Below, one piece after another: positions 10,846-35,005 of a stretch of DNA of 41,638 nt. Numbering within the stretch: the stretch's first letter is position 1; each line of letters begins with the position of its first letter. The DNA comes from Phycisphaerales bacterium. GTDB lineage: Bacteria; Planctomycetota; Phycisphaerae; Phycisphaerales; SM1A02. The DNA is taken from NCBI GenBank assembly GCA_022446965.1, contig JAKVBV010000021.1, positions 1 to 41,638 on the forward strand. The letters are read 5' to 3'. Below the pieces are notes generated by a model that was not told the DNA's origin, did no database searches, and saw only the letters and a program-made list of their open reading frames with translations. A program made the position numbers and the translations under genes.

Positions 10846-10911
10846 TCGTCATGTCCCTTCATGGACGTGAACCCTAGCTGCAACCGTGTTGCTTTGGCTA
10901 GCATCCTTGAC

Positions 10912-12198
10912 ATGCTTCATGCAACAACACTGATCGTGGCGTTGGCCGCCGGCGCACCTGATTCTGAATTCGTTGATCTCTTCAACGGCGACACGCTCGC
11001 CGGCTGGGTGAATGTGAACGGCGCCGAGTCTACGTGGCAAGCCGAGGATGGCATGATCAAGTGCACAGGCAAGCCGGTGTGCCTGCTCCGCACTGACCGC
11101 ATGTACGAGAACTTCGTGCTGGAATTGGAGTGGCGACACCACGAACCCAAGGGCAATGCCGGCGTGTTCGTGTGGTCCGACGCGCTGCCCCACCTTGGCG
11201 TGCCATTCTCCCGTGCCATCGAAGTGCAGGTGATGCTTGGCGTGGAGACACCCAACTACACCAGCGAAGGCGACATCTTTTCCATCTGGGGGGCCACGAT
11301 GACGCCCGATCGACCCCACCCGGCGGGATGGGCCCGCTGCCTCCCCAGTGAAGCTCGCACCAAGGGCGCCGGTGCGTGGAACCACTATCGCATCGAGTGC
11401 CTTGACGGCCGCATCACGCTCGCCAACAACGGCAAGGTGGTCAGCGGCGGATACGACTGCAACCCACGCCGTGGCTACATCTGCCTGGAAGCTGAAGGCA
11501 CACCTGTCGACTTCCGCAACCTCCGCATCAAGGAACTGCCATCCGAACCGGCACCTCAGGCTGCCAGCGCCAATGCGGCCACGGGCTTTCGTCCACTCTT
11601 CAATGGACTTGATCTCTCCGGCTGGACGCCACCGAAGGGCAAGGAAGACAACTGGTCGGTCAAGAGTGGCCGACTCGTACACAACGGCAACGGTGGCGAT
11701 TGTTGGACCAGCGATGACTACGGGGATTTTGATCTCGTGTGCGACTGGCGTTGGATCGGCGACAGCCAAGGCCCCATGGATCGACCGGTTATTTTGCCCG
11801 ACGGTTCTGTTGCCAAGAACGAGGACGGATCGAATCAGACCGTGCGGATCGATGAACGCGACAGCGGGATCTACCTGCGCGGTTCGAGCAAGAGTCAGGT
11901 GAACATCTGGGCCTGGCCGGTGGGGTCGGGCGAGGTGTACGGCTATCGCACCGATGGTCGCCAAACGCCCCAAGTGCGGGCTGACGTCACCCCGCGTGTC
12001 GCCGCCGATGCACCCGTTGGTGAGTGGAACCGCTTCTTTATCCGGATGCGAGGAGATCGCCTGACGGTCGTCCTCAACGAGCACACTGTGCTGGAAAACG
12101 CGCACCTGCCCGGAGTTGCGCTCAGGGGCCCCATCGGTCTGCAGAGCCATGGCAGTGGGATCGAGTTCACAAATGTGCTGATCCGAACACTCGATTGA
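10912..12198 (+). CDS. Secreted tandem 3-keto-disaccharide hydrolase (DUF1080) protein
   Basis: 428 residues. MLHATTLIVALAAGAP is a short signal peptide. Two DUF1080 domains follow. The first begins FVDLFNGDTLAGWV near residue 22. The second begins FRPLFNGLDLSGWT near residue 226 and ends IGLQSHGSGIEFTNVLIR. Both keep the LFNG...L.GW opening, W at the start of the next strand and the concanavalin-like beta pattern. DUF1080 members are abundant in planctomycetes and include hydrolases of 3-keto-glycosides; others may only bind glycans. I chose ATG 10912 because the signal peptide starts there; ATGs further upstream (10729, 10861) add non-protein-like sequence. Confidence 0.88.
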   Translation: MLHATTLIVALAAGAPDSEFVDLFNGDTLAGWVNVNGAESTWQAEDGMIKCTGKPVCLLRTDRMYENFVLELEWRHHEPKGNAGVFVWSDALPHLGVPFSRAIEVQVMLGVETPNYTSEGDIFSIWGATMTPDRPHPAGWARCLPSEARTKGAGAWNHYRIECLDGRITLANNGKVVSGGYDCNPRRGYICLEAEGTPVDFRNLRIKELPSEPAPQAASANAATGFRPLFNGLDLSGWTPPKGKEDNWSVKSGRLVHNGNGGDCWTSDDYGDFDLVCDWRWIGDSQGPMDRPVILPDGSVAKNEDGSNQTVRIDERDSGIYLRGSSKSQVNIWAWPVGSGEVYGYRTDGRQTPQVRADVTPRVAADAPVGEWNRFFIRMRGDRLTVVLNEHTVLENAHLPGVALRGPIGLQSHGSGIEFTNVLIRTLD

Positions 12199-21003: not shown

Positions 21004-21183
21004 GGCACCATTGTGGAGGGCATCGCCCTGCCGAATCCCACCAGCGTCGCCTTGCATGAAGCCTGCGGCTTTCGTCCCGTGGGCGTGTTCCATGAGGTAG
21101 GCCGCAAATTGGACCAGTGGTGGGATGTGGGCTACTGGGAGCTGGTGCTGGAGCCCTCGTCAGGCTCGTCCCCTGCGACGTGA
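21004..21183 (+). pseudogene. 3' remnant of a phosphinothricin-type GNAT acetyltransferase
   Basis: The last 59 codons of a GNAT family N-acetyltransferase are recognisable: GTIVEGIALPNPTSVALHEA, then CGFRPVGVFHEVGRKLDQW, then DVGYWELVLEP. This is the acetyl-CoA-binding C-terminal half of the phosphinothricin/methionine-sulfoximine acetyltransferase group. The frame stays open upstream to about 20815, but the sequence there has no GNAT character. The substrate-binding N-terminal half and the Arg/Gly acetyl-CoA loop are absent, so about two thirds of the gene is missing. It probably has no activity. The 3' end overlaps the RND gene end (21132) on the other strand. Confidence 0.65.
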
Positions 21184-24100
21184 CGCCACAGGCGCTGCAG
21201 ATCATCCACGGCGATGTACAGCGCCGGCACGATCAACAAGATCACGAACGTGGCGAACAGAATGCCGAATCCGATCGACAGGGCCATGGGCACCAGAAAC
21301 TTCGCCTGAATGCTCGTCTCGAAGATCATCGGCGAGAGTCCACAGAACGTGGTGATGCTGGTCAGCAGAATCGGCCGGAAGCGCCGAGTGCCCGCCACCA
21401 TCATGGCATCGATCGCCGTGCCCTGAGGATGACGCTGCCGCCACCGGTTGGCCGTCACGACCAATACGAGTGAATCGTTCACCACCACACCGGACAATGC
21501 GACCACGCCAAACATCGTGATGATGTTCAGGTTGTAGCCAAGCAAGATGTGACCGATCAATGCACCGATGAAGCCGAACGGAATGGCCGACATCACGATC
21601 AATGGTTGCACGTAACTCTTGAATGGAATGGCGAGCAGCCCAAAGATCACCAGCATGGCCAGGGCGTACCCCGTGCCGAGATCCTCGAACGTATCCATCT
21701 GATCTCGAAACTCACCTTCGAACGACCACGTCAATCCCGGATGCCGCGGAGCGATGTCGGACCACAACCGGGGGGCAAGATCGACGATCACCTCGTTGGC
21801 GTTCGTGATCTGCGTATCGACTTCAGCCGATACCGCCAGCACCCGTTGCCCATTGATGCGGGAAATGGCGGTACGAGCACGATCCGGTGTGATGGCCACC
21901 GCTTCTGACAACGGCATTTCATCACCAGTGGGCGTGCGCAGCACCAGTGTGTCGAGCACGCCCAGAGACGACCGCTCGTGTTTGGGCAGCCGCACCATCA
22001 CCCGAAGCTCATCGCGGCCACGCTGCTGCCGCATTGCTTCAGCCCCGTAAATGGCGTCACGACCCTGCCGGGCCGCGTCCAGCGTGGTGATGCCCGCGGC
22101 ACGTCCTTCCGGCGTGAGCGTGAAGTTCAGCTGTGGCTTGCCGGTGGACACGCCCGAGTCCACGCCGCGGATCCCTTCGTATCCCTCGAGCATGGCCGCC
22201 ACATCGAGTGCGGCGGCGTCGAGCGCATCTCGATCTCGGTGAATCAGACGGATCTCAAGCGGCTTGTCGCCCTCGCCGAATCCGTCGCGAAAGGACATCG
22301 CCTCCACACCGGCAACCGGCCCGATGGCATCGCTCCAGCGTGACGTGATCACCGACGCGGGCACGGTCTGCCGCTCAGGATCAAGCATCACCCACATCGA
22401 GACGAGTGATTCGTCGGCGCCTTCGATCCGCACCGGACCGAACGGGTTCAGGTTGGCCCCCACCACGGAGAACTTGCCGTCCACCGCGTCGGTCAGTTCC
22501 AGTTCGGTGATGGCCGTATCGAAGCCATCCTGAAGTGCCGTGAGCACACGGTCAGCTTCGCTGCGCGGCGCACCCACGGGCAAGCGACCCGAAACGATGA
22601 TCGCACCCGAGTCGATCGCTGGCATGAATGTGAACGGAATCCAACCGCCTGCGACGTAGCCGATGGATGCAAGCAACATTGCCACGCCTGCGGTGATGGT
22701 GGCATACCGATTGCGAAAGCACAGCCAGGCAAACGGCGTGTAGCACCGCTCGATGGTCCATTGCAGCCCAGCGCGGCACCGTGCTGAAGGCTTGCCCACG
22801 GCCCGCCAGAATGCGGAGTCCTTGCCCTTGTGGGCCAGGTGGGCGGGCAACACCAACAGCGACTCGATCAACGACACGAAGAACACGCTGATCGTGATCG
22901 CCGGGATCTGCATGAACAGCTTGCCCTCACCACCAGGGACGAAAAACATCGGCGCGAACGCCACGATGTTCGTGGTGACAGCGAAGAACACCGGCATCGA
23001 TATCTCTTTGGCGCCAGCGATAGCCGCGTCGAGCACCGGCAACCCCTGCTGTCGCTGCTCGTAGATGTTTTCCCCCACCATGATGGCGTCATCCACAATG
23101 ATGCCCAGCGTCACGATGAACGCGAACAGCGAGATCATGTTGATCGTCGCGCCCGTCAGGGGGATGAAGAGGAACGAGCCGAGAATCGAGATCGGAATGC
23201 CGAGCATCACCCAGAACGCGAGGCGTGGCTCGAGGAACAAGCCAAGCATCAACAGCACGAGCGCCAAACCGATGTAGGCATTGCGCAACAGCAGATCGAT
23301 GCGTTCGCGGTAGATCACCGAGTCGTCGTTCCAGATCGTCAGATCGATGCCGGCTGGCACGCTGGAGATGGCCTGGTCCACGAAGGCATGAGTCGCTTCG
23401 GATACACCGATGGGTGTTTCCATGCCGGTGCGATACACCTCGACAGAAATTGTGCGATCGTCATTGAAGAACGCGGCAAGATCCTGCTCGCGGAAATCCT
23501 CACGAATGTCGGCGATCATGCCCAGCGTGACGCGCGTGCCGTCGGGCCGCGTGATGACGGGAATGTCCTTGAACTGGGCCGCCGTCTCTCGCCGCTCATT
23601 CGTTCGCACCAGCACCCGGCCGGACTCCGACCGGATCTCTCCGGCGGGCAGGTCCACCGAAGCGGCGCGAATGGCATTAGCGACGTCGCCGATGGTCAGG
23701 TGCAGTGATCGCAGTGTGTCGGCCGACACCTCAACCGCGATTTCCAGCGGCCGCGCATACGAAAGCTCGGCGAACGTGATCCCCGGCGTCTGCAACAGAT
23801 CTTCGCGCAGCCGTTGGGCGGTTTCTCGCAAGGTGCGTTCGTCGGCATCGCCGTGCACCAGGACCGACACCACTCGATTGCGTGACGAGAACAACCGCGC
23901 CGTGGGCCGTTCGATGTCTTCCGGGAAGGACGTGATCCGGTCAACTTCGGCCTTGATGTCCTGCAACGCCTTGGGGGCGTCCACGCCACGCACCAACTCG
24001 ACGATGACACTGCCGCCACCCTCCGCGGCCGTGGAGGACACACGCTTGACCCCTTCCAGCCCTTCCACCACGCCCTCGATGGCCAGCAACACACCCTGCT

Positions 24101-24305
24101 CGACCTCTTCCGGCCCGGCACCGGGATAGGCCACCGACACGATCGCCATGTCGATCGTGAATTCCGGAAACACCTCCTGCTTGAGCCGACCGGCCATCAA
24201 CAGGCCGCCGATCATGAAGGTGATCATCAGCAGATTGGCTGCAACCGGGTTGCGGCACATCCAGCCAATGAGGCCGTCGCGTTCTGAAGGCAGGCCGCGG
24301 CGCAT
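21132..24305 (-). CDS. RND family efflux permease (AcrB/HAE type)
   Basis: 1057 residues, full length for the family. The first membrane helix is NPVAANLLMITFMIGGLLM. Two periplasmic porter loops follow (about residues 50-345 and 570-880). The TM4 proton-relay pair is in TLGIIVDDAIMVGENIYEQ (near residue 400). GVVALSGVVVNDSLVLVV is the matching TM10 region. The first TM is preceded by only ~17 residues, as usual. It would pump hydrophobic or amphiphilic compounds out through the adaptor and the outer-membrane channel, driven by protons. The ATG shares one base with the adaptor stop (TGATG at 24303-24307), so translation is coupled. Confidence 0.95.
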   Translation of the reverse strand: MRRGLPSERDGLIGWMCRNPVAANLLMITFMIGGLLMAGRLKQEVFPEFTIDMAIVSVAYPGAGPEEVEQGVLLAIEGVVEGLEGVKRVSSTAAEGGGSVIVELVRGVDAPKALQDIKAEVDRITSFPEDIERPTARLFSSRNRVVSVLVHGDADERTLRETAQRLREDLLQTPGITFAELSYARPLEIAVEVSADTLRSLHLTIGDVANAIRAASVDLPAGEIRSESGRVLVRTNERRETAAQFKDIPVITRPDGTRVTLGMIADIREDFREQDLAAFFNDDRTISVEVYRTGMETPIGVSEATHAFVDQAISSVPAGIDLTIWNDDSVIYRERIDLLLRNAYIGLALVLLMLGLFLEPRLAFWVMLGIPISILGSFLFIPLTGATINMISLFAFIVTLGIIVDDAIMVGENIYEQRQQGLPVLDAAIAGAKEISMPVFFAVTTNIVAFAPMFFVPGGEGKLFMQIPAITISVFFVSLIESLLVLPAHLAHKGKDSAFWRAVGKPSARCRAGLQWTIERCYTPFAWLCFRNRYATITAGVAMLLASIGYVAGGWIPFTFMPAIDSGAIIVSGRLPVGAPRSEADRVLTALQDGFDTAITELELTDAVDGKFSVVGANLNPFGPVRIEGADESLVSMWVMLDPERQTVPASVITSRWSDAIGPVAGVEAMSFRDGFGEGDKPLEIRLIHRDRDALDAAALDVAAMLEGYEGIRGVDSGVSTGKPQLNFTLTPEGRAAGITTLDAARQGRDAIYGAEAMRQQRGRDELRVMVRLPKHERSSLGVLDTLVLRTPTGDEMPLSEAVAITPDRARTAISRINGQRVLAVSAEVDTQITNANEVIVDLAPRLWSDIAPRHPGLTWSFEGEFRDQMDTFEDLGTGYALAMLVIFGLLAIPFKSYVQPLIVMSAIPFGFIGALIGHILLGYNLNIITMFGVVALSGVVVNDSLVLVVTANRWRQRHPQGTAIDAMMVAGTRRFRPILLTSITTFCGLSPMIFETSIQAKFLVPMALSIGFGILFATFVILLIVPALYIAVDDLQRLWRHVAGDEPDEGSSTSSQ

Positions 24306-25507
24306 CAGGGCTGATCCTGGTCCACCAGCAACATGCCGGCCACAGGCGTGGGCACCGCACTGGCGATGATGCGATCACCCTGATCGAGGTTGAGATCAAC
24401 GATCACGGTGTCCAAGGTGCCCGCGAGAACATTGACCGGCTGAATGCGAAGCCTGCTGTCCACCCCGATCACCCAGACAACATCACCCTCACGCAGTACC
24501 GACCGCGGCAGCACGACGGCGTCATCTCGTGACGGACCTTGCAAGGTGACGGCGACATAACTGCCCAGCAGCAGTGGCATCCGTTGACCCACCGCCTGAT
24601 CGAGCGGCCGATCCACCTGCACCAGTACTCGCGCCTGCCGCCCGGCCCCGTCAACTGAACCCAGCAGTCGATCAATGCGACCGACATAGGTGGCAGCTGT
24701 GCCGTCGGCCAGCCGAACCTCGATGGTCGCTTCGCCACCAGGCACATCACCACGAGGCAGCTGCACGCGGGCGAGTTCCTCCATGGGGACACCAGCCTCC
24801 ACCCACCAGGCATCAATGCCGACGAGCGTGGCCAGCACCGTGGTTGGCCCGACCAGCGAGCCCTCCGCTACCGTTCGTTGCTGCACCATGGCGTCGAACG
24901 GCACTTCGACCCTGGTACGGGCGAGCGCCAGTTGTGCTTCTTCCACGCGCGTCCGGGCTGCTTCCACCGCCGACTTGGCCTCACGTAGATGCGGGCCACG
25001 CAATGCGAGATCGGATTCTGCAGCCTCGAGCGATAGATCGCCCAACACACCACCAAGCAACTCGAAGTCGTTGCGCGCGATCCGCGATCTCCCTTCTTCG
25101 ACCTGCAGGTTGAACTTCGCTGTAGCCAGCCCGGCTTGAGTCTGCTGCAACGCCAGTTCGAAATCGCGACGTTCGATCTGCGCCACGAGCGTGCCCTTGG
25201 GCACCACCCTGCCTGGCGTGAGCGCCTCGTCAACCACGGTTACACGACCGGACACTTGCGGCTGCAACGAGACGGTGCGACTGGGCTTCACTTCGCCCCA
25301 TGCCAGCACATCGAGGCGATGACTGGCCTGCTCGGTGCCGATCGTCCGCACGGCCGTGGCCAACTCGGTACGTTCCACCCGCGGGGGCTGTTCACGTGCA
25401 CTGAACAGGGTCATTGCCGCCAGGACACCCAGGCCGAGAAAGCCCACGGGAACCAGCACACGAATCAACGACATCACGGGACGAGCCTTCTTGGCCAGTG
25501 CGTTCAT
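24305..25507 (-). CDS. RND efflux periplasmic adaptor (membrane fusion protein)
   Basis: 400 residues. One N-terminal membrane anchor (VLVPVGFLGLGVLAAMTLF) is followed by the HlyD/AcrA order: half lipoyl motif VSLQPQVSGRVTVVDEALTPG, a helical hairpin (about 130-215, with LQQTQAGLATAKFNLQ), the second half lipoyl RVEVPFDAMVQQRTVAEGSLVG, beta-barrel IDAWWVEAGVPMEELA, and a membrane-proximal domain. It bridges the pump and the outer-membrane channel. The start has AAGGAGG four bases upstream and overlaps the outer-membrane-factor stop as ATGA (25504-25507). The long open frame further upstream is inside that neighbouring gene. Confidence 0.93.
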   Translation of the reverse strand: MNALAKKARPVMSLIRVLVPVGFLGLGVLAAMTLFSAREQPPRVERTELATAVRTIGTEQASHRLDVLAWGEVKPSRTVSLQPQVSGRVTVVDEALTPGRVVPKGTLVAQIERRDFELALQQTQAGLATAKFNLQVEEGRSRIARNDFELLGGVLGDLSLEAAESDLALRGPHLREAKSAVEAARTRVEEAQLALARTRVEVPFDAMVQQRTVAEGSLVGPTTVLATLVGIDAWWVEAGVPMEELARVQLPRGDVPGGEATIEVRLADGTAATYVGRIDRLLGSVDGAGRQARVLVQVDRPLDQAVGQRMPLLLGSYVAVTLQGPSRDDAVVLPRSVLREGDVVWVIGVDSRLRIQPVNVLAGTLDTVIVDLNLDQGDRIIASAVPTPVAGMLLVDQDQP

Positions 25508-26928
25508 GTCTCCTCCTTCGACAGCACGCGCCGGGTATTCACCGGCGGTTCCAGGTCCTGCATCCAATCCCCGCCCAGGGCCAGATAGAGATTTGCGCGA
25601 TAGACCAACCGTTGCCGCCGCGCTTCGACATGCTGTCGCTGCAGGCCTTGCAGCACCTGCACGGCGTTGATGACATCGAGGTACTCCGCCAAACCGTCGG
25701 CGTACTGCAGATGCGCCTCGGCCAACTGCGCCTGTGCGATGCGGATCTGTTTCTCGATTTCGATCAGGAGCGCGTCTTGCCACTGCTCACGCTCAAGTGC
25801 GTCGTCCACTTCTCGCGTGGCCGTGAGGAAGGTGTCTGTCCAGGCAGCCAGACGCTCCTGGACGGCCGCTTCCTGGCGATCAACTTCGAAACGGCGGCGG
25901 TTGGCGTCAAAGATCGGCTGAAAGAACGAACCGCCGATGGCGACGGTGGTCATGTCGATCGGGCCGCCAAAGTTCGACGCGTGCAGATCGCCGTCGATCG
26001 TCAAACGCAGCGCCGGCAGACGGTCAGCGACCGCCGCCGCGACAGCGTGATCCGCCGCGGCCAGCGCGTGATGTGCCCCGCGAACATCAGGTCGCCGTAC
26101 AAGAAGATCCGCCGGTGCGCCCAAACTGGGAAATGGCGGCACTTCTGGCAGGAAGTCCTCGACCATGCCTTCGGGCATCGACTGTGGGGCGCGGCCCACG
26201 AGCGTGGCCAGCGCATTCCAGGACACGCCCAACGTGGCTTGGGCCGGCGGGATCATCGCCCGGGCAGCTTCCACCTGTTGACGTTGCTGCAATACCTGCA
26301 GTGCGGTTCCGAGCCCGTTGGCGTAGCGATACTCCACTGACTGCAGCAGCGCCTCGGATACCGCCACTTGTTCGTCGAGCACCTCGAGCAGTTCAGATGT
26401 GGCACGGATCGTGAACCATGCATCGGCCACCTGACCGGTCAGGGCCAGCGCCGTGGCGTGCACCTGCGCCGCACTCGCCTGAGCTGTCAGTTGGGCGGCT
26501 TGAGCCGTGTTGGCGATGCGCTTCCACACGTCGATTTCCCACGACAACCCAGCCCCCACGATCACGCTGGTCGCACCACTGGAGCCACCTGGAACACCAC
26601 GAACGTCTGTCTCGGTGTGCGACAGATTCCGCGATCGCACGGCAACTTCCGGCAGCAGCGGCGCGTGCGCGATACCTGCCTGGGCTCGGGCCTGCGCCAT
26701 TCGTGCCCACGCCTGCCGCAACGACTGGTTGTGTGCCAAGGCCTCGTCGATCCACTGATCAAGCATGGGATCGCCGTAGGCTCGCCACCACTGCTGGGGA
26801 TGGGGATGGCCTTCAGGCACATCCCCCCAGGACAGCGGCACGTGGACATCAGGCAGTGCCCGATCGTGCACGGGATGCACGGTGCACCCGCCCAACACCA
26901 CCAGGATGCAGCACGCACGCTTCATCAT
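25504..26928 (-). CDS. Outer-membrane efflux channel lipoprotein (TolC/OprM/NodT type)
   Basis: 474 residues. The N-terminus MMKRACCILVVLGGCTVHP has a lipobox-like LGGC, so it is probably a lipoprotein. The mature part holds two outer-membrane-factor repeats, with WWRAYGDPMLDQWIDEALAHNQSLRQAWARMAQAR at the entry in typical form, LSWEIDVWKRIANTAQAA, LVRRPDVRGAHHALAAADHAV and a coiled tail ending LALGGDWMQD. It would form the exit duct of the RND pump. The ATG at 26928 overlaps the TetR stop as ATGA; a second ATG follows directly at 26925. Confidence 0.93.
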   Translation of the reverse strand: MMKRACCILVVLGGCTVHPVHDRALPDVHVPLSWGDVPEGHPHPQQWWRAYGDPMLDQWIDEALAHNQSLRQAWARMAQARAQAGIAHAPLLPEVAVRSRNLSHTETDVRGVPGGSSGATSVIVGAGLSWEIDVWKRIANTAQAAQLTAQASAAQVHATALALTGQVADAWFTIRATSELLEVLDEQVAVSEALLQSVEYRYANGLGTALQVLQQRQQVEAARAMIPPAQATLGVSWNALATLVGRAPQSMPEGMVEDFLPEVPPFPSLGAPADLLVRRPDVRGAHHALAAADHAVAAAVADRLPALRLTIDGDLHASNFGGPIDMTTVAIGGSFFQPIFDANRRRFEVDRQEAAVQERLAAWTDTFLTATREVDDALEREQWQDALLIEIEKQIRIAQAQLAEAHLQYADGLAEYLDVINAVQVLQGLQRQHVEARRQRLVYRANLYLALGGDWMQDLEPPVNTRRVLSKEET

Positions 26929-27521
26929 GACACCCCAGCCGCTTGACGAATGCCGGCGATCGTCATGGTGGTCACGTGATCGGCGATGGCCTCGGGGTTC
27001 GACGATGGCACGCCCTCGAGCTGCTCCAGCAGCCCGGTGCTCCCGCGATAGATGAGGCACTGGCCCACCACCGACAACGCGATGCGTGATACCGATTGTT
27101 GGTCAAGCGATTCATTGCCGACCGCCGCGATGATGTCACGCAGCGCGTCGAACACCGGCTGCATGCCACGCTGCACGAGTTGCTCCATGGCGCCGGTGGG
27201 ATTGGACCGTTCATGGACCATGAGTCGGTCAACCAACTGCGCGTCTGAGGCCGTCAATCGCCGGACGTACCACAACACCCACGCGTGCAAGGCATCCACT
27301 GGATCGGCATCTGCCAGTGTGGGCATGGGCGCATCGGCCAGCGATTGATACGCATCGAGCAGGACCTGCGCATAGAGCGAGGCCTTGTCACCAAAGTGGT
27401 AGTTGACCGCTGCGATGTTGACGTCGGCGGCCGTGCACAAATCACGTACGCGGGTGCCATGCAGACCGCGGGCGGCGAACTGCACGCTGGCAACATCCAG
27501 AATGCGTTGACGGGTGGACAT
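26925..27521 (-). CDS. TetR/AcrR family regulator (CecR/CerR-like)
   Basis: 198 residues. The N-terminal helix-turn-helix spans residues 3-50 (RQRILDVASVQFAARG, VRDLCTAADVNIAAVNYHFGDKASLY). The C-terminal part has LMVHERSNPTGAMEQLV and MQPVFDALRDII, matching the DUF1956 (CerR-type) ligand domain found in CecR, a regulator of efflux genes in E. coli. It is the first gene of the operon and overlaps the outer-membrane-factor gene by four bases, so it probably represses itself and the pump until a ligand binds. The candidate operator is 27536-27548. Confidence 0.92.
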   Translation of the reverse strand: MSTRQRILDVASVQFAARGLHGTRVRDLCTAADVNIAAVNYHFGDKASLYAQVLLDAYQSLADAPMPTLADADPVDALHAWVLWYVRRLTASDAQLVDRLMVHERSNPTGAMEQLVQRGMQPVFDALRDIIAAVGNESLDQQSVSRIALSVVGQCLIYRGSTGLLEQLEGVPSSNPEAIADHVTTMTIAGIRQAAGVS

Positions 27522-27632: not shown

Positions 27633-28202
27633 TCAGATGGGGTCAAAATCACTGGGCCCCAGCCCGCGCGGCTTGAGCATGCGGGCGGGCGAGCCCACGC
27701 AAATCGACCAGCTCGGCAGATCCTTGAACACATCCGAGCGGGCCCCCACCACGGTGCCATCGCCGATGTCCACCCCTGCGGCGACAAAGCAATCGGCCGC
27801 CACCCAGGCTCGGTCACCGATGACGATCGGCTTGGGCACCAATGGGAAGTCGACATGCTCGTGGTCGTGGGTGGCGCCGCACAGATAGGTGTACTGACTG
27901 ACCACGGCATGAGCCCCGATGGTCACGCCGCCCACGTTGTACACGTCAACGTCATTGGCAATGCACGCATGCGCGCCCATGGTGAGCCGGCTTGGACACC
28001 AGATCACAGCCTTGGGATAGATGCGAGCGGTGGGATGCAGCTTGGCGCCGAACACACGCAGCAGCATGTTGCGCCACAGATGGCACGGACGCGGCGTCCA
28101 GCGAAACAACAGCACGTAGGCGAAGGCCCACAGCACACGGGCGATCTTGTTGCCCATCGTGTGCGGCGAAATGCCCTGCTTGGGTGTGCCGTTGTCGCTC
28201 AC
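27633..28202 (-). CDS. WcaF-like left-handed beta-helix acyltransferase
   Basis: 189 residues, GTG start nine bases after the formyltransferase stop. A short helical N-terminus (RVLWAFAYVLLFRWTPRP) precedes hexapeptide repeats: LHPTARIYPKAVIWCPSRL, ACIANDVDVYNVGGVTIG, VVSQYTYLCGATHDHEH, IVIGDRAWVAADCFVAAGVDIG. The His pair in GATHDHEHVDFPL is where WcaF-type O-acetyltransferases carry their catalytic His. The end ICVGSPARMLKPRG is typical. It probably acetylates a sugar of an exported polysaccharide, in the cytosol or at the membrane. It is the last gene of the saccharide cassette. Confidence 0.88.
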   Translation of the reverse strand: MSDNGTPKQGISPHTMGNKIARVLWAFAYVLLFRWTPRPCHLWRNMLLRVFGAKLHPTARIYPKAVIWCPSRLTMGAHACIANDVDVYNVGGVTIGAHAVVSQYTYLCGATHDHEHVDFPLVPKPIVIGDRAWVAADCFVAAGVDIGDGTVVGARSDVFKDLPSWSICVGSPARMLKPRGLGPSDFDPI

Positions 28203-28211
28203 AGCGCCACC

Positions 28212-29000
28212 CTACCGCAACCTGTGCCCACGAGCCTTGAACCGCCGCATGTCCTCCCGTGTGGGCATGCTGAAGTCGCTCGACTGAGCCTCTTCGTTGG
28301 GCATGGTCTCGGGATCCCCCGCCCGAACCTTGTGCACGCACTCGATGATCGCCTCGGCGGCAAGGTCTTTGGAGCGGGCCATGACGTCTTCGAGGCAGTC
28401 GTGTGCCTTGAGCGTGTAGCGCTTCTGCACCACGATCGGCCCGTCGTCGAGCTTCTCATTGACGAAGTGCACGCTCACACCACCCTCGCGTTCGCCATTG
28501 GCGAGCGTCCAGAAACTGGGCATCAGACCGCGATACTTGGGCAGCAGTGCGCCGTGGCAGTTCACGATGCCACGAGGCGTCTGCTCCCGGAGCGCCTTGC
28601 CGTAGAACTGGGTGCCCGAGATGGACAGAATGAACTCCACACCCTGATCACGCAGCATGGCTCGGAACGCGTCGGAGTTCACATTGAGCGCCTCAGTCAC
28701 GTCGACGCCGTACCGCTTGGCCACCGCCTTCACGCTGTGGCACGTACGGGTGGATCCGAGGATGTCATTGACGATCTTGCCCTGGATCTTCTTCCAGACA
28801 AAGCGACGAAACTTCCACTGGAAGTACCCAAAGCCGTAGAGCTTGAGCAGGTCCATCGCAGTGCCGAAGAGGGACCGCTTGCCCTGGGCGACACTCTGAA
28901 TGTTCACACCCATGCAGTCGTCGCCGAATTCACGCAGCACCTTGTCGAGCACCTTGGGCAGATAGAAGGGCTCGTTCTGAATGAACACGTAGAACTTCAC
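28212..29000 (-). CDS. Formyltransferase family protein in a saccharide cassette
   Basis: 262 residues. The catalytic core of the methionyl-tRNA/GAR formyltransferase fold is clear: GIVNCHGALLPKYRGLMP (N147, H149) and EKLDDGPIVVQ, whose Asp pair (185-186) completes the Asn-His-Asp set. The N-terminal half is Lys/Phe-rich and differs from tRNA formyltransferases, and no C-terminal OB domain is present, so tRNA is an unlikely substrate. In polysaccharide loci such enzymes N-formylate amino sugars with 10-formyl-THF. No aminotransferase is visible here, so the acceptor is unknown. Its ATG overlaps the GT4 stop as ATGA (28997-29000). Confidence 0.85.
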   Translation of the reverse strand: MKFYVFIQNEPFYLPKVLDKVLREFGDDCMGVNIQSVAQGKRSLFGTAMDLLKLYGFGYFQWKFRRFVWKKIQGKIVNDILGSTRTCHSVKAVAKRYGVDVTEALNVNSDAFRAMLRDQGVEFILSISGTQFYGKALREQTPRGIVNCHGALLPKYRGLMPSFWTLANGEREGGVSVHFVNEKLDDGPIVVQKRYTLKAHDCLEDVMARSKDLAAEAIIECVHKVRAGDPETMPNEEAQSSDFSMPTREDMRRFKARGHRLR

Positions 29001-30226
29001 GCCGTGATCGCCTTCTCGACTTCGTCACAGAATCGACCACAGAGCGATGTCTTGGAGTACTCACGGCGGATGGTTTCTTGCGCCCGCTCGCCCATGGCAC
29101 GCAACTCGTCGCGTGAGGTGGCGGCGATCGCCTTGAGGGTGTCCACCGCACCGTCGACATCACCGTGGGCGATGTGCCAGCCGATGTTGTTGTCCGCCAC
29201 GATGTCTGATGCATGACATGGATCCGGTGCCAGCAGCAGAATGGGTCGCCCCACAGCCATCGCGCCGTAGATCTTGCACGGGTGCACCACACCAACCACG
29301 TCATCGCCGACCGACACCAGATGCACGTCGGCGGCGCTCAGGGAATAGCGCAACGTTTCAAACGGCTGATAGGGCATCGAACGGATGTTGGAGGGTTGAT
29401 GCTCGGCGATCGTGTCGTCGACATCCTTCTTACCCACACCACCACCAATGAAGAGGAACTCCATGGTGTCGTCGTCCTGCAACTTCAAGGCGGCATCCAA
29501 CACCGTGCGCACCGGGGTAGAGAACCCGTGATTGCCGGAGTACATGATCACGAACGACTTCGGGTCGACGTTCGCCTGCCGCCAAGGGTTGTCTGCATGA
29601 TCGATCATCTCCATGTGGTCGTCGTGAGGCCACGGTGGCATGACTGCCGTCTTGCCGGAGATATCTCGCTTCTTTTGCAAGCGTGCTTCCATGAAGCGGT
29701 CCAGCGGCACGATGCGTCGGGCCCGACCGAGGATGCGCCGATTGAGCCAGTTCATGCAGCGTACGGGCAGCGAACCGTCCTTCACCTTGCCCAGTTCGAT
29801 CACCTGGTCAGGATTGAGATCCATCACCCAGTAACAGATGGGCGTTCGGCGCAACCATGACACCACCAAGGCGGCCACAGGACACATCGGCGGAGATGTG
29901 CTCACCACGATGCATGACATGCGCCTGGTGAACAGCCCCATCAGCATTTCCTGCACCATCAGCAGCACGGCGGCAAGCACCCGCAGGGGCAGGCTCTTCT
30001 TGCCGAACGAACTCAATGGCAGACGACGAATCTCGACACCGTCACGCACCTCATGCAGGGGGTACTTGCGGCTGGGATCGTCATAGCCTCGGCTGGCCGC
30101 GAGCACCTTGACGCGGTGCCCACGACGAACCAACTCGGCTGCCGCATCGTGCATGTGCTGACCGACACTGGCCGGATCAGGCACATAGACCTGCGTCAGG
30201 ACGAGGATGGTGCCTCGCGTACGCAT
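28997..30226 (-). CDS. Glycosyltransferase family 4 (WbuB-like)
   Basis: 409 residues with a GT-B two-domain arrangement. The N-lobe starts GTILVLTQVYVPDPASVGQHM and has AAELVRRGHRVKVLA. The C-lobe starts at FVIMYSGNHGFSTPVRTVLDAA. The nucleotide-sugar site is seen as VVGVVHPCKIYGAMAVGRPILL, the WbuB-type form of the family EPxGxxxxE region. GT4 enzymes of this group transfer a sugar to a growing O-antigen or exopolysaccharide unit at the inner membrane face. A hydrophobic stretch (LRVLAAVLLMVQEMLMGLF) could dip into the membrane. The epimerase stop is only four bases upstream. Confidence 0.9.
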   Translation of the reverse strand: MRTRGTILVLTQVYVPDPASVGQHMHDAAAELVRRGHRVKVLAASRGYDDPSRKYPLHEVRDGVEIRRLPLSSFGKKSLPLRVLAAVLLMVQEMLMGLFTRRMSCIVVSTSPPMCPVAALVVSWLRRTPICYWVMDLNPDQVIELGKVKDGSLPVRCMNWLNRRILGRARRIVPLDRFMEARLQKKRDISGKTAVMPPWPHDDHMEMIDHADNPWRQANVDPKSFVIMYSGNHGFSTPVRTVLDAALKLQDDDTMEFLFIGGGVGKKDVDDTIAEHQPSNIRSMPYQPFETLRYSLSAADVHLVSVGDDVVGVVHPCKIYGAMAVGRPILLLAPDPCHASDIVADNNIGWHIAHGDVDGAVDTLKAIAATSRDELRAMGERAQETIRREYSKTSLCGRFCDEVEKAITA

Positions 30227-30230
30227 GAGC

Positions 30231-31223
30231 TCAGGCGTTGGTCTTCGACCCGTACTTGGCGAGGTACTCGGCCTCGATCCAGTCGTAGGTCTTCTTCATG
30301 CCGTCACGCAGCTTGATGCCCGGAGCCCAGCCCAGACGGTCCATGATCATGGTGTTGTCCGAGTTGCGGCCGTTCACGCCCTTGGGCGCGTCGAGCTTGT
30401 GCGTGCGTTCCAGCTTGATACCGGCAATGTCCTCGACGATGTCCACCAGACCATTGATCGTGGTGAGTTCGTCACTGCCGAGATTGATCGGCTCGAGGAT
30501 GTCGCTGTGGGTGATGTCTTGGATGCCCTTGATGCAGTCGTCGATGTACATGAACGACCGGGTCTGCTTGCCATCACCCCAGATCTCGATCGAGTGATCG
30601 CCGGTGTGCTTGGCGTGAATGACCTTGCGGCAGATGGCTGCCGGCGCCTTTTCGCGTCCACCTTCCCACGTGCCTTCGGGCCCGTAGACGTTGTGGAAGC
30701 GGGCAACGCGGCAATACATGCCGAAGTCCTCGCGGAAGTGGCGACACATGCGCTCGGAGAAGAGCTTCTCCCAGCCGTAGCCGTCTTCGGGCATGGCGGG
30801 GTAGGCGTCTTCTTCCTTCAGCGGAATGACGTCTTCACTCACCTGCTTGTCGGCGTTGTACACACACGCGGAGGAGGAGTAGAAGTACTTCTCACATCCG
30901 CAATCCCGTGCGGCCAGCGTCATGTGCACATTGATGAGCACGGACAACATGCACAGGGCCTTGTTGTTCTCAATGAAGCCCATGCCGCCCATGTCGGCGG
31001 CAAGCTGGTACACCTCTTGCATGCCTTCGCAGGCCGCGTAGCAGGCGTCTTTTTCCTGCAGGTCGGCGACGACGTTTTCGGCCTCATCGTGGACCTGGTA
31101 CCACTGGTCGTAGGGCTTGATGTCCACGCTGCGGACACGATGCCCCTGCTCGAGGAAGGTCTTCACGAGGTGGCCACCGATGAAGCCGCCACCACCGGCG
31201 ACGAGAATGGTCTTCTGCGACAT
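30231..31223 (-). CDS. GDP-mannose 3,5-epimerase-like SDR enzyme
   Basis: 330 residues. The Rossmann motif GGGGFIGGHLV (10-20) binds NAD. The rest follows the plant GDP-mannose 3,5-epimerase closely in motif and spacing: LAADMGGMGFIENN, SSSACVYN (C120), DGYGWEKL (Y149, K153), RFHNVYGPEGTWEGGREKAPAAICRK (K192), GDGKQTRSFMYIDDC and GVNGRNSDN. C120, Y149, K153 and K192 keep the spacing of the Arabidopsis residues C145, Y174, K178 and K217, as I recall that enzyme. It would convert GDP-D-mannose to GDP-L-galactose and/or GDP-L-gulose in the cytosol. It is first in the cassette and probably supplies the sugar for the GT4. Confidence 0.88.
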   Translation of the reverse strand: MSQKTILVAGGGGFIGGHLVKTFLEQGHRVRSVDIKPYDQWYQVHDEAENVVADLQEKDACYAACEGMQEVYQLAADMGGMGFIENNKALCMLSVLINVHMTLAARDCGCEKYFYSSSACVYNADKQVSEDVIPLKEEDAYPAMPEDGYGWEKLFSERMCRHFREDFGMYCRVARFHNVYGPEGTWEGGREKAPAAICRKVIHAKHTGDHSIEIWGDGKQTRSFMYIDDCIKGIQDITHSDILEPINLGSDELTTINGLVDIVEDIAGIKLERTHKLDAPKGVNGRNSDNTMIMDRLGWAPGIKLRDGMKKTYDWIEAEYLAKYGSKTNA

Positions 31224-31525
31224 GTCTGGGTTGGATCCTGTGTCCTGAGTGGGGTCTTGTCGTGCGGGTCACTTGCCCCCCCGGGCACAGCATCGGCCCC
31301 GGTTGGGGGGCATCCTGAGCCACAGGTGGCAAAATCGCGATGATAGCACAACACCGTGCTGCTCGGCAGCGGTCCAGAACCACTCCAGACGCTCCCTAAA
31401 TATCGTGTTGGCAGCACTATGCGCCCAGCGCAGGCCAGGTTCGCGCCGGGGCAGGAACTTCCTCGGATACCCCCTGTCCTGCGGCGAGATGCTACAACCG
31501 CTGTTCTTCCCCTTTGGAGCCCCCT
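31224..31525. other. Divergent intergenic region (302 bases)
   Basis: It separates the epimerase (-) and tricorn (+) genes and should hold both promoters. I see no gene. An inverted repeat AGCAC-AACACC-GTGCT lies at 31345-31360. An AT-rich island, CCTAAATATCG, lies near 31395-31405. A C-run (31275-31281) and a G-run (31312-31318) could pair loosely. No convincing -35/-10 pair was found for either gene. GGAG at 31516-31519 is the tricorn ribosome site. Confidence 0.5.
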
Positions 31526-34500
31526 ATGCCCCTCTCAAGCCTGTTCGTCTCGTTGCTGCTCGCCGTCCCTGTCGCGGACTGGACCCACACTGGCGGATTC
31601 CCGCAGTACCCCGCGCTGACGCCCGACGGCGGCCATGTCGTGTTCTCGGATGCCGGCGATCTCTGGTCCGTGCCCGCCACCGGCGGAACAGCTACACGAC
31701 TGACCTCCCATGGGGCCAATGAACTGGCCAGTGCAGTCTCGCCCGACGGCACCCACCTGGCGTTTGAATCCAATCGCGACGGCACCACGAACATCTACCT
31801 GCTGCCCATCACCGTGGACACCGGACGCCTCGTCGTCTCGGGCGGCATCCGTCGCGTCACGACGAGTGATCGCTCCCAAGCGCTCAGTGGCTGGTCCGCA
31901 GATGGCCTGGATGTGCTCTTCAGCAGCTCCCACGAGCCGGCCACCTATCGCACACCCCGAATGTACGCCGCGCCCATCGACGGCGGCCCCGTGCGACGCC
32001 TGAGCGATGCTCATGGTCGTGAACCGCGCATCAGCGCCGATGGATCCACCCTCACGTTCACACGTGGCTACGCACCCTGGGCCCGCCCAGCCTACCGCGG
32101 CAGTGGTAATCGCGACGTGTGGGCGATGGATACGGCCACAGGCACGTTCCGCAAGGTCAGCGACCACCGAGCCAACGACGGCCAGACGTTCGTGCGCCCG
32201 GATGGCTCCATCGCGCTCGTGTCCAGCCGCGACGGTCAGAACAACATCTGGCTCGTGCCCAAGGACGGCATGGTGCGACAGGGCCGACAGCGCACGCAGT
32301 TCGCACCGACCGACACTGACACGACCATCGGCCACGGCGTGCGCGATCTGCATGTGTCCGCGGACGGCTCCACCGCCACATTCGCGGTGTGGGACACGCT
32401 CTACACCCTGAACCTCGATGACCGCGACGCCACCCCACAGGCCGTGGACGTTGCTCGCAGCGGTGATCTCGTCACGCTCGACGCACGGCGCCAGAGCCTC
32501 GACCGAGAAGTGGATGAAGCACGCCTGCACCCCTCCGGCGACGCGATCGCCGTGTCGGCTCGAGGCGAACTGCTCGTGCGTTCACTCGATGAAGACTATC
32601 CCGCTCAGCGCATCAGCCCTGACCAAGCGCGTCAGCGTGACATCGCCTGGTCGCCCGACGGGCACACCCTCTACTACAGCACCGATGCCAATGGTGCGGT
32701 GGAGATTCATGCCGCCACCGTGACACTGCACCGAGGCGATCTTGATGCATCGCCCGAAGACGACGACGCTGAAGACAAGGCCGTCAAAGAAGACACGAAT
32801 GCTCAGAACGAAACCGAATCGGATGACGCTGAAGACGCGTCCACCGAAGACGGCAGCGAAGAAGAGGGCGAGGACGACGCAAAGAAAGACACGGCCAAAG
32901 CCAAGCCGGCCAAGAACGACACCGGTGCACACTGGGCCTCTGCGCTGCGCTTCGACACGGCGCCCGTCATCACCGGTGACTTCGATGCCCGCCGCCCGCA
33001 GCCATCTCCTGATGGCCGCACCATGCTCTACACCCGCAATCGCGGTGACCTGGTGCTTCGTGATCTGGCCAGTGGCGAAGACACCGTGCTGCTGGAGTCG
33101 TGGAACGATGCGGATGCACGCTGGCTGCCTGACAGCCGACACATCGTCTACAGCGTGGACGACATGGACTTCAACACCGACGTGTGGTTGATGGACGTCG
33201 CCGACCCGAGCACGGCCGTGAATCTCACACGGCACCCGGACATCGACACATCACCGCGCATCAGCGACGACGGCACGTTCCTGGTGTTCCTCAGTGATCG
33301 CGGTCGCATCGGGCACAACTACGAATTCGACGTGTACGGCATGGCCCTCGATCCCGCCCTGCTGGACATGGCGGACTGGGCCTACGACGACCATGTCGAG
33401 GCGGCGGGTAAGGCCGTGTCTGGCAAGTCGATCCTGCCGATCGTCGATCTGTCGGACACCTCCGAGGCCGGCGAGCCCCTCACCTTCACCGACTTGGACA
33501 CCGCATGGCGACGCGTCTTCCAGATCACATCACTCGATGATTCCGAGAGCGACCTGTACCTCACCCGCGACGGCAAGCGCGTCCTCTTTAGTGGTGATGT
33601 CGACGGCACCAACGCACTGTGGTCCACCGACTGGCGCGGCAAGGGCCGCAAGCAGGTGGTCGCCGGAAGCGTGTCCGACCTGCATGATCTGCCCAACGGC
33701 AAGCAGCTGAGCTATGTCTCCGGCGGCCAGGCCAAGACCGTGGCCCCGTCGGGCGGATCCGCCAAGACTCGAAGCATCGACGCCGATGCCCAGATCGATC
33801 TGGCGGCTGAGCAAGCGCAGAAGTTTGCAGAAGCCGCCCGCCTGTTCGGCCGTGACTTCTATCACCCCACCATCAAAGGCCTCGATTGGCCGGCGCTCAG
33901 CGCCCGATACGGCGAGCTCGCCGCCAGAACACGCACGAGCCAGGCCTTCAATCGTGTCCTCAACGAGATGTTTGGTGAGGTGAACGGCTCCCACACTGGT
34001 GCTTGGGGTGGCTTCGGTACACCTGGCACCGGCCGCACGAGCATCGGCTATCTCGCAGTGGATGCGAGCCCGGTGCCCGGCGGATGGCAGGTGGACCGCG
34101 TCATGCCCGAAGGCCCCGCCGACATGGCAGACGGGCTCAACGTGGGCGACATCATCCGTGCCGTGAATGATGTGCCATTCACGACAGACGACACGTTGCT
34201 GCCGCAGACGGATATAGGCGTCGCCCTCAAGGACACCGCCGGCAAGGAGACCATGCTCGCGGTGCGTTCGCCCCAAGGCGAAGACCGCCTCATGTTGATC
34301 ACACCCATCAGCAGTGGCGCCCTGCGATCGCTGGCCTATCTCGACGAAGTGGAACGCACACGTGCCCAGGTTGAGGCAGCATCTGATGGACGCCTTGGCT
34401 ATCTGCACATTCGCGGAATGAACATGCCCTCCGTGCACGACTTTGAACGCGACCTCTACGCCGCCGCCCATGGCAAGGATGGACTGCTCATCGATGTGCG

Positions 34501-35005
34501 TGATAACGGCGGTGGCTTCACGACAGACATCCTGCTGTCGAGCCTGACTGCACCCGTGCACGCCTACACGGTGCCGCGAGGGTCAGATCCCGCCCACCTG
34601 CACCCTGACACCTACCCGCGGGACCGTCGCTTGATCTACGCCTGGACACGGCCCATCGCCGTGCTGTGCAATCAGAATTCGTTCAGCAATGCTGAGATCT
34701 TCAGCCATGCGATTCAGACCACGGGCCGCGGCCCTGTGATCGGTCAGGAAACATTCGGCGGCGTTATCTCGACGGGCGCCCACACCTTGATCGACGGCAC
34801 CACCATCCGCCGGCCGTTCCGCGGCTGGTATCTGCCTGACGGCACCGACATGGAGTCCCGTGGCGCCATTCCGGATGTCATCGTTGAACGCACCCCTGCG
34901 GACGAAGTCGCTGGCGTGGATGCCCAACTCGAAGCGGCGATCAAGCGACTGCTGCAAGACATCCCGGCGCATCCACCCGTGGCATCGCCCAAGCCTGCAT
35001 CGTGA
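31526..35005 (+). CDS. Tricorn-type S41 protease
   Basis: 1159 residues. After a signal-like start (LSSLFVSLLLAVPVADW), the first ~740 residues are TolB/WD40-like propeller blades (YPALTPDGGHVVFSDAGDLW, LASAVSPDGTHLAFES, PQPSPDGRTMLYT). They are interrupted at about 408-470 by a long Asp/Glu/Lys-rich linker. Next come the C1 region (ARLFGRDFYHPTIKGLDWPAL), a PDZ domain (about 838-925, ADGLNVGDIIRAVNDVPF) and the S41 core: LLIDVRDNGGGFTTDILL, then NSFSNAEIF with probable nucleophile S1054, and GPVIGQETFGG. Tricorn enzymes degrade oligopeptides made by larger proteases; the signal suggests a periplasmic site. GGAG six bases before ATG 31526 decides the start. Confidence 0.93.
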   Translation: MPLSSLFVSLLLAVPVADWTHTGGFPQYPALTPDGGHVVFSDAGDLWSVPATGGTATRLTSHGANELASAVSPDGTHLAFESNRDGTTNIYLLPITVDTGRLVVSGGIRRVTTSDRSQALSGWSADGLDVLFSSSHEPATYRTPRMYAAPIDGGPVRRLSDAHGREPRISADGSTLTFTRGYAPWARPAYRGSGNRDVWAMDTATGTFRKVSDHRANDGQTFVRPDGSIALVSSRDGQNNIWLVPKDGMVRQGRQRTQFAPTDTDTTIGHGVRDLHVSADGSTATFAVWDTLYTLNLDDRDATPQAVDVARSGDLVTLDARRQSLDREVDEARLHPSGDAIAVSARGELLVRSLDEDYPAQRISPDQARQRDIAWSPDGHTLYYSTDANGAVEIHAATVTLHRGDLDASPEDDDAEDKAVKEDTNAQNETESDDAEDASTEDGSEEEGEDDAKKDTAKAKPAKNDTGAHWASALRFDTAPVITGDFDARRPQPSPDGRTMLYTRNRGDLVLRDLASGEDTVLLESWNDADARWLPDSRHIVYSVDDMDFNTDVWLMDVADPSTAVNLTRHPDIDTSPRISDDGTFLVFLSDRGRIGHNYEFDVYGMALDPALLDMADWAYDDHVEAAGKAVSGKSILPIVDLSDTSEAGEPLTFTDLDTAWRRVFQITSLDDSESDLYLTRDGKRVLFSGDVDGTNALWSTDWRGKGRKQVVAGSVSDLHDLPNGKQLSYVSGGQAKTVAPSGGSAKTRSIDADAQIDLAAEQAQKFAEAARLFGRDFYHPTIKGLDWPALSARYGELAARTRTSQAFNRVLNEMFGEVNGSHTGAWGGFGTPGTGRTSIGYLAVDASPVPGGWQVDRVMPEGPADMADGLNVGDIIRAVNDVPFTTDDTLLPQTDIGVALKDTAGKETMLAVRSPQGEDRLMLITPISSGALRSLAYLDEVERTRAQVEAASDGRLGYLHIRGMNMPSVHDFERDLYAAAHGKDGLLIDVRDNGGGFTTDILLSSLTAPVHAYTVPRGSDPAHLHPDTYPRDRRLIYAWTRPIAVLCNQNSFSNAEIFSHAIQTTGRGPVIGQETFGGVISTGAHTLIDGTTIRRPFRGWYLPDGTDMESRGAIPDVIVERTPADEVAGVDAQLEAAIKRLLQDIPAHPPVASPKPAS

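What the first reader, a model, noticed from the sequence alone, without database searches (positions are those of the whole stretch)
27633..31223. Compact cassette: GDP-mannose 3,5-epimerase, GT4, formyltransferase, WcaF-like acetyltransferase
Four minus-strand genes are packed with gaps of 4, -4 and 9 bases. The epimerase keeps all four catalytic positions of the plant enzyme, best known from ascorbate synthesis, yet its neighbours are polysaccharide enzymes. The set suggests that GDP-L-galactose or GDP-L-gulose is transferred and then acyl-modified. The formyltransferase is odd because no aminotransferase is nearby to make the amino-sugar acceptor. The combination may define an undescribed surface glycan unit.
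Basis: partly seen in the sequence, partly recalled or inferred. Interest (0 to 1): 0.6.

Follow-up and report, generated by a model that had tools for sequence, protein, structure and literature searches.

The report
Split L-galactose and formyl-sugar gene set
Four packed genes in a marine planctomycete that seems to have lost its flagellum look like one half of a split sugar-coat gene set that would add the rare sugar L-galactose and a formyl group; the other half, including the enzyme that probably frees the amine to be formylated, lies elsewhere in the genome.

Summary
The four genes, strands and gaps are as described. The epimerase carries every diagnostic residue checked for GDP-mannose 3,5-epimerase. 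Its glycosyltransferase co-occurs with it (13 of 14 genomes), while most related islands without it carry gmd, an fcl-like gene and another glycosyltransferase: I infer a donor swap from GDP-L-fucose to GDP-L-galactose.

The formyltransferase puzzle has a likely answer. In 18 of 24 genomes with this formyltransferase a DUF3473 polysaccharide deacetylase lies beside it on the same strand, and no aminotransferase was detected there. A genome from another order and a haloarchaeal plasmid, fetched as tests, show a deacetylase there too (two weaker plasmid hits do not). In the window's genome the deacetylase survives alone on another contig, at the parB-cysS site where flagellated relatives keep the island next to fliD-fliS. 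So the cassette is half of a split island.

Flagellin, FliD and FlhA were not found here, which argues against flagellin glycosylation. Best reading: an N-acetylhexosamine is deacetylated, then N-formylated, and L-galactose is added and O-acetylated. Activities and the glycan are untested; an ArnA/ArnD-like deformylation scheme is the main rival.

The parts
30231..31223 (-). GDP-mannose 3,5-epimerase (GME/GM35E), 330 aa; S118, C120, Y149, K153, N178, K192, R222 and R286 match the Arabidopsis diagnostic residues
28997..30226 (-). GT4 glycosyltransferase, distant WcaI relative, in a clade tied to GME; predicted (not shown) L-galactosyltransferase
28212..29000 (-). sugar N-formyltransferase-like protein, 262 aa; N147, H149 and D185 invariant in 22 homologues; helices at residues 44-80
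27633..28202 (-). WcaF-like hexapeptide acetyltransferase, 48% identical to E. coli WcaF
26925..27521 (-). flank: CecR-type TetR regulator before the RND efflux genes; not counted as part of the cassette
31514..35005 (+). flank: Tricorn-like protease, divergent; the same neighbour in G001 and G002

Best explanation
The cassette is half of a split glycan island. GDP-mannose (a protein with the ManC GMP domain is encoded on C69) is turned by the epimerase into GDP-L-galactose (GDP-L-gulose as side product). The GT4, a distant relative of the WcaI fucosyltransferase, transfers L-galactose where related islands transfer L-fucose. The WcaF-like enzyme O-acetylates that residue. Separately, a DUF3473 polysaccharide deacetylase encoded on contig C80 removes the acetyl group of an N-acetylhexosamine in the same glycan, and the formyltransferase N-formylates the freed amine, so no aminotransferase is needed. 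Shown: family assignments, conserved catalytic residues, genomic linkage in relatives, the split of the island and the absence of the flagellar genes searched for. Inferred: every substrate, the order of steps, the history of the split, and that the product is a cell-surface glycan.
For: GME: 8 of 8 diagnostic residues checked, with Lys and Arg where GDP-fucose synthases have His and Lys. GT4 orthologues of at least 50% identity: 14 of 61 genomes, 13 with GME (GME in 22 of 61, leaving out a 36% hit; Fisher p 9e-7, not corrected for relatedness). GT tree: a 26-row clade, all with GME within 6.5 kb, though most of these loci were found through GME. Of 12 formyltransferase loci without GME, 9 hold gmd and an fcl-like gene, one an fcl-like gene alone, two neither. 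The E. coli record names WcaI a fucosyltransferase, and its WcaE entry names O-acetylated fucose as acceptor. 21 of 21 FT genomes have DUF3473 against 14 of 40 others (12 of 40 over the cut-off; p 2e-7). In 18 of 24 FT genomes the two are neighbours on the same strand. New loci: G334 has GT4-FT-DUF3473 followed by UDP-GlcNAc 2-epimerase and a UDP-sugar dehydrogenase; a Haloarcula plasmid has deacetylase and formyltransferase genes overlapping by 4 bases. Own C80: parB - fcl-like - deacetylase - cysS - coaE - rho; in five relatives parB-fliD, then the island, then cysS. The own fcl-like protein lost the epimerase Cys and His.
Against: No activity was measured. 9 of 22 GME genomes lack the close GT4. 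G053 has a 50% GT4 with gmd and fcl and no GME. G034 has GME with a fucose-type GT4. Two GME loci also hold gmd (L042, L108). In 6 of 24 FT genomes the deacetylase is not adjacent: G023 (6.3 kb, other strand), G021 (other contig) and the window's own lineage G000, G001, G002, G036, so cooperation here rests on relatives. Six GME loci hold the deacetylase without FT (L039, L044, L119, L124, L126, L127), so the deacetylase is not tied to formylation. Two other plasmid hits looked at have no such pair. The archaeal deacetylase is PF01522 but not DUF3473. The fcl-like enzyme kept beside the own deacetylase has unknown activity.
Confidence: 0.5

Rival explanations
1. Formylation is transient, as in the arn lipid A pathway (ArnA formylates, ArnC transfers, ArnD deformylates; pathway and operon order recalled, not from a call): the formyltransferase protects an amino sugar and the deacetylase-like enzyme later removes the formyl group, leaving a free amine.
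For: The formyltransferase's best PDB sequence matches are ArnA, and ArnA domains are among the best fold matches. The order GT-FT-NodB-family enzyme recalls arnC-arnA-arnD.
Against: No aminotransferase detected beside the pair (tblastn with one DegT query; none of the 25 families listed, out of 119, is DegT). The own deacetylase scores 269 bits with TIGR03006 and does not match the ArnD model at E 1e-3; the G034 homologue scores only 19 bits with it. Pfam finds no second domain in the formyltransferase, whereas ArnA has a dehydrogenase part.
Confidence: 0.2
2. The formyltransferase works on an amino sugar made by the DegT aminotransferases encoded elsewhere in the genome (C58 Wzy-type locus or C20), like known nucleotide-sugar N-formyltransferases.
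For: Two strong DegT genes at C20 and C58; C58 also holds a dehydratase, a PglD-like acetyltransferase and an initiating sugar transferase.
Against: In relatives the formyltransferase travels with the deacetylase, and no aminotransferase was detected beside it.
Confidence: 0.15
3. The cassette serves flagellin glycosylation, as the position of the island beside fliD-fliS in relatives suggests.
For: In five relatives read here the island lies between fliD and cysS (L118, L119, L120, L128, L129); flagellin glycosylation islands with formyl- and acetyltransferases at fliDC are described in enterobacteria (PMC4875605, passages).
Against: FliD, flagellin and FlhA were not found in the window's genome; FliD and flagellin are also absent in G001, G002 and G036, which keep the cassette; 8 of 21 FT genomes lack flagellin. 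It may still apply to the flagellated relatives.
Confidence: 0.03
4. The cassette makes a small molecule such as an L-galactose- or L-gulose-bearing antibiotic rather than a surface glycan.
For: Bacterial GMEs are linked to bleomycin and A201A (PMC6678494); here the cassette lies beside RND efflux genes.
Against: Homologous clusters hold several glycosyltransferases and sulfotransferases; no polyketide or peptide synthase is among the families shown there, but one search shows only 25 of 119 families.
Confidence: 0.07

Closest known systems
Colanic acid genes gmd-fcl-wcaI-wcaF of E. coli
   Same: GDP-mannose-derived L-sugar donor, WcaI-like GT4 and WcaF-like acetyltransferase
   Different: GME in place of gmd+fcl; a formyltransferase is added; no Wzx, Wzy or Wza in the window; GT4 only 22% identical to WcaI
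Bacterial GM35E locus of Methylacidiphilum fumariolicum (PMC6678494; passages and discussion section read)
   Same: GM35E next to a glycosyltransferase, proposed envelope role
   Different: No formyltransferase or deacetylase is mentioned in the discussion that I read
Sugar N-formyltransferases (ArnA, WbkC, WlaRD, FdtF)
   Same: Formyl_trans_N fold and N-H-D triad
   Different: Known ones use aminotransferase-made amino sugars (recalled); this one travels with a polysaccharide deacetylase
Flagellin glycosylation islands (PMC4875605, passages)
   Same: Glycan genes beside the flagellin/cap genes with formyl- and acetyltransferases
   Different: No flagellar genes found in the window's lineage; the cassette is at another site
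XrtA/PEP-CTERM polysaccharide deacetylase TIGR03006
   Same: Own C80 deacetylase 269 bits (cut-off 276); the G034 homologue scores 339 bits
   Different: Here in a parB-cysS island, beside a formyltransferase in relatives; exosortase association not tested

Membership tests
GDP-mannose 3,5-epimerase (GM35E) | Ser-Tyr-Lys triad plus catalytic Cys and Lys (Lys, not His) | tested here: met
   S118, Y149, K153, C120, K192 (criteria from PMC8787198)
GDP-mannose 3,5-epimerase (GM35E) | Arg that acidifies the Cys (Lys in GDP-fucose synthase) | tested here: met
   R286 aligns with R306
[quoted passage not shown]
   needs an assay
GDP-L-fucose synthase (Fcl/GMER) | Catalytic His base | tested here: not met
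   Lys in the window protein; 106 bits against cut-off 500
WcaI glycosyltransferase | Curated family score | tested here: not met
   PRK10307 141 bits, cut-off 276; wcaI 60 bits, cut-off 800
WcaF acetyltransferase | Curated family score | tested here: not met
   TIGR04008 165 of 326; PRK10502 177 of 192; 48% identity to E. coli WcaF
Formyl_trans_N sugar formyltransferases | Pfam domain and N-x-H...D triad | tested here: met
   PF00551 87.5 bits; N147, H149, D185 invariant in 22 homologues; VIA Z 20-21 to Fmt and ArnA
Formyl_trans_N sugar formyltransferases | Amino-sugar acceptor made by an aminotransferase in the cluster | tested here: inconclusive
   in the window itself none; in relatives none detected by tblastn with one query beside FT; Pfam scan of 56 of 74 unlabelled neighbours shows no DegT among the 25 of 119 families listed, so a single case could be hidden; the genome has DegT genes elsewhere
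ArnA/ArnD pair | ArnD-type deformylase | tested here: not met
   own deacetylase has no PRK15394 match at E 1e-3
Flagellin glycosylation island | Flagellin present, island beside fliC/fliD | tested here: not met
Wzx/Wzy polysaccharide locus | Flippase, polymerase or export genes in the cluster | tested here: not met
   no such Pfam family among the 37 window ORFs scanned; a Wzy-type locus exists on C58

The most novel reading that the evidence does not exclude
A deacetylase and a formyltransferase form a conserved acetyl-for-formyl exchange module for glycan hexosamines, found in planctomycetes and at least one haloarchaeon and independent of the aminotransferase route; the planctomycete islands exchange their L-sugar module (gmd+fcl for L-fucose, gme for L-galactose) around this core.
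Probability: 0.4. Interest if true: 0.65.

Novelty: new variant of a known kind. Interest (0 to 1): 0.5.

Why it matters
If true, N-formylated surface sugars can be made by editing an existing N-acetyl sugar, which would widen the search for formylated glycans to organisms without the usual aminotransferase genes in the cluster, archaea included. It would also show how a donor swap (L-fucose to L-galactose) is achieved by exchanging an epimerase together with its glycosyltransferase, and that a glycan island can outlive the flagellum beside which it sat.

Tried and rejected
Flagellin glycosylation for this organism: rejected, because flagellin, FliD and FlhA were not found. The epimerase as another SDR: rejected. 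The formyltransferase as methionyl-tRNA formyltransferase or PurN: curated scores far below cut-off (73.9 of 201.5; 65.1 of 150.1), though Fmt structures are its best fold matches. Recent recombination of the epimerase with the G036 lineage: third codon positions are as diverged (58% identical) as against the genus-mates (61% and 52%), so not supported. Promoters and terminators: counts near the shuffled expectation (1 against 0.9; 3 against 2.1), no use. Plasmid hits H2 and H3: H2 lies where no gene is annotated and no glycan cluster is seen, H3 is in a peptide-synthase/siderophore-like cluster; neither has the pair, so 1 of the 3 plasmid loci read has it (PLSDB's gene tables are incomplete). 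56 of 69 plasmid records are Pantoea; those among the 25 listed are annotated arnA. Literature: searches listed no paper whose title or shown start of abstract describes a deacetylase plus formyltransferase exchange (39, 40 and 44 returned nothing at all); subscription papers are mostly not held, so this is weak evidence of absence. One search gave one paper, not on WcaI/WcaF function, which I did not open.

Limits: the gene caller is my own and missed or mis-framed some genes (for example GME in L112 and L038), so presence calls rest on tblastn. The GT tree is a quick tree (SH-aLRT only) with long branches flagged; one row (L074) was cut to 420 residues because its frame ran on; L103 and L078 were left out as copies of L120 and L119. 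Most GT4 loci were found through a GME search, so the tree alone is biased; one search is the less biased count. The formyltransferase counts use matches with E below 1e-23 (12 close, 9 distant) plus three named loci found through GME (L038, L045, L064); weaker matches were left out because their frame lengths suggested ArnA or Fmt, which I did not test. The 36% GME hit in G035 was left out of the GME count. One search scanned 56 of 74 unlabelled neighbours; the 18 dropped were short or recurring flank genes. Fisher tests treat related genomes as independent, which they are not. The residue numbers of E. coli Fcl are recalled.
Full report
The observation. The window is contig 27 of a 2.24 Mb genome in 112 contigs, 97% complete. 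The nearest named epimerase loci are in Phycisphaerales MAGs of the ALOHA series (L032, L033).

The epimerase. Its best solved relatives are plant GDP-mannose 3,5-epimerases (E 1.6e-95), and the next named family follows at 6e-25. A review (PMC8787198, passages) gives residues that separate GM35E from GDP-L-fucose synthase. All eight that I checked are present, including the Lys base (His in fucose synthase) and the Arg (Lys in fucose synthase); identity to the Arabidopsis enzyme over 309 aligned residues is 46%. A protein with the ManC GMP domain, for GDP-mannose supply, lies on C69. The first characterised bacterial enzyme lies next to a glycosyltransferase and was proposed to serve LPS synthesis (PMC6678494). 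GME in a glycan cluster is therefore known.

Conservation of the set. In 61 genomes (own plus 60 relatives) GME is present in 23 at E 1e-40, one of which is only 36% identical. The exact four-gene order is in the window's genome and both genus-mates (L113, L114). G036 has GME-GT4-FT; G025 has GME-GT4-FT-deacetylase-AcT; G042 and G050 have all of these with other genes inserted. Three more named loci (L038, L045, L064) have GME, GT4, FT, deacetylase and AcT homologues. The formyltransferase is rare: 4 of 294 genomes sampled across the phylum at E 1e-40, the window's own included.

The missing amine maker. In larger clusters the gene beside the formyltransferase encodes a polysaccharide deacetylase with DUF3473. 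In the 61 genomes, 21 carry this formyltransferase (12 close, 9 distant, all with E below 1e-23). All 21 carry DUF3473, against 14 of the other 40, or 12 of 40 over the cut-off. With three named loci, 24 genomes were examined. In 18 the two genes are neighbours on the same strand with gaps of 18 to 479 bases. In G023 they are 6.3 kb apart on opposite strands, in G021 on different contigs, and in the window's lineage (G000, G001, G002, G036) on different contigs. The two formyltransferase subfamilies are only about 30% identical, so the link is old. The reverse does not hold: six GME loci have the deacetylase but no formyltransferase. A DegT aminotransferase query found nothing near the formyltransferase in these loci. 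A Pfam scan of 56 neighbours lists glycosyltransferases, sulfotransferases and methyltransferases among its 25 shown families and no DegT, but 119 families matched in all. I then looked at loci that had played no part in forming the idea. G334, the one further genome found in the phylum-wide search, from another order of the class, has GT4, formyltransferase and DUF3473 deacetylase in a row, followed by UDP-GlcNAc 2-epimerase and a UDP-sugar dehydrogenase, which points to an N-acetylhexosamine context. Of three plasmid loci read, the one whose match covers over 80% of the query, from the archaeon Haloarcula halobia, has a polysaccharide deacetylase gene overlapping the formyltransferase gene by 4 bases among glycosyltransferases, with no aminotransferase annotated in 18.8 kb; its deacetylase carries PF01522 but not DUF3473. 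The other two have no such pair.

A split island. In five relatives read here (L118, L119, L120, L128, L129) parB and fliD lie on one side of the island and cysS on the other, with fliS found in four by tblastn and in L128 only as a weak protein match; coaE and rho follow cysS in L119 and L120. In the window's genome contig C80 reads parB - fcl-like SDR - deacetylase - cysS - coaE - rho (L147), and G001 and G002 are the same (L148, L149). G036 has parB - fcl-like - deacetylase without cysS in the stretch read (L150). FliD and flagellin were found in none of the four, and FlhA not in the window's genome. The simplest history, inferred, is that flagellar genes were lost, the GME-GT4-FT(-AcT) part moved to the efflux-operon site seen in the window, and the deacetylase stayed. 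Eight of 21 formyltransferase genomes lack flagellin, so the glycan is not only a flagellin decoration.

The donor swap. Of 12 formyltransferase loci without GME, 9 carry gmd and an fcl-like gene, one (L134) an fcl-like gene only and two (L135, L141) neither. The L152 gmd scores 536 bits (cut-off 415); the L134 fcl-like protein scores 292 bits (cut-off 500), and the three such proteins aligned keep Cys109, Tyr136, Lys140 and His179. Their glycosyltransferases fall in other clades of the tree. In the four genomes with the split island the remaining fcl-like protein has lost the Cys (S, A, A, I) and the His (N), while Ser/Thr, Tyr and Lys remain. A gmd query had no match at E 1e-10 in the SDR loci read from the window's genome. 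GT4 orthologues of at least 50% identity occur in 14 of 61 genomes, 13 of them with GME, in one case (G011) far from it. Exceptions: G053 has a 50% GT4 with gmd and fcl, G034 has GME with a fucose-type GT4, and two GME loci also hold gmd. E. coli annotation names WcaI a fucosyltransferase and gives O-acetylated fucose as WcaE's acceptor. L-fucose is 6-deoxy-L-galactose (general knowledge), so a WcaI-like and a WcaF-like enzyme beside GME fit an L-galactose version of the same step. The GT4 is only 22% identical to WcaI and the acetyltransferase 48% to WcaF.

The formyltransferase itself. N147, H149 and D185 are invariant in 22 homologues. The AlphaFold model (7 sequences, mean pLDDT 84, pTM 0.85) matches Fmt and ArnA structures (VIA Z 20-21, rmsd about 3, about 210 residues). 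It has helices at residues 44-80, and the second subfamily lacks about 13 residues at 76-88. The acceptor cannot be read from this.

The deacetylase. The own protein scores 269 bits with the XrtA deacetylase model (cut-off 276) and does not match the ArnD deformylase model at E 1e-3; the H-x3-H motif, the RAP motif and the late His are invariant in 14 homologues. That favours deacetylation over deformylation but does not prove it. The order GT-FT-NodB-family enzyme resembles arnC-arnA-arnD (recalled), so I keep an ArnA/ArnD-like scheme as the main rival.

Verdict. The finding is a new variant of known L-sugar glycan clusters, with a possibly general deacetylase-formyltransferase module as its most novel part.

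Noticed in passing
L147:632-1552 (own genome C80), L148, L149, L150: Fcl-like SDR beside the deacetylase has lost the epimerase Cys and His in four genomes but keeps Ser/Thr-Tyr-Lys; its new activity is unknown.
   Followed up: partly
L113:13458-14336, L114, L112:12350-13120: A class II glutamine amidotransferase-like gene (nearest EgtC, 154 bits, cut-off 219, tested for L113 only) lies between the cassette and the TetR gene in G001, G002 and G036 but is missing in the window.
   Followed up: no
window 30231-31223 against L112: The window's epimerase is 92% identical to that of another genus (G036) but 81-84% to its genus-mates, whereas GT4 and FT are nearest the genus-mates; third codon positions do not support recent exchange.
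   Followed up: partly
L136 (own genome C58): Wzy-type glycan locus with UDP-sugar dehydrogenase, CapD-type dehydratase, DegT aminotransferase, PglD-like acetyltransferase and initiating transferase.
   Followed up: partly
L117, L116, L126, L127: Family f2 clusters add sulfotransferase genes, an anion transporter (CitMHS) and two ABC permease genes, suggesting a sulfated glycan (families tested on L117 and L045).
   Followed up: no
L118 (G034): GME coexists with a fucose-type GT4 and the second formyltransferase subfamily, an exception to the donor/GT pairing.
   Followed up: no
L038: A record titled Cyanobacteria bacterium carries a planctomycete-like GME-GT4-FT-deacetylase cluster; possibly a misassigned bin.
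   Followed up: no
window 21132-27521: TetR/CecR-type regulator followed by outer membrane channel, HlyD and AcrB-type pump genes; looks like an ordinary RND efflux operon.
   Followed up: no
window 15128-18094 and 10861-12198: A GH38 alpha-mannosidase gene and a 3-keto-disaccharide hydrolase gene lie in the same window.
   Followed up: no
L161:6461-7960: Heparinase II/III-like gene directly before the GT4-FT-deacetylase set in G334.
   Followed up: no
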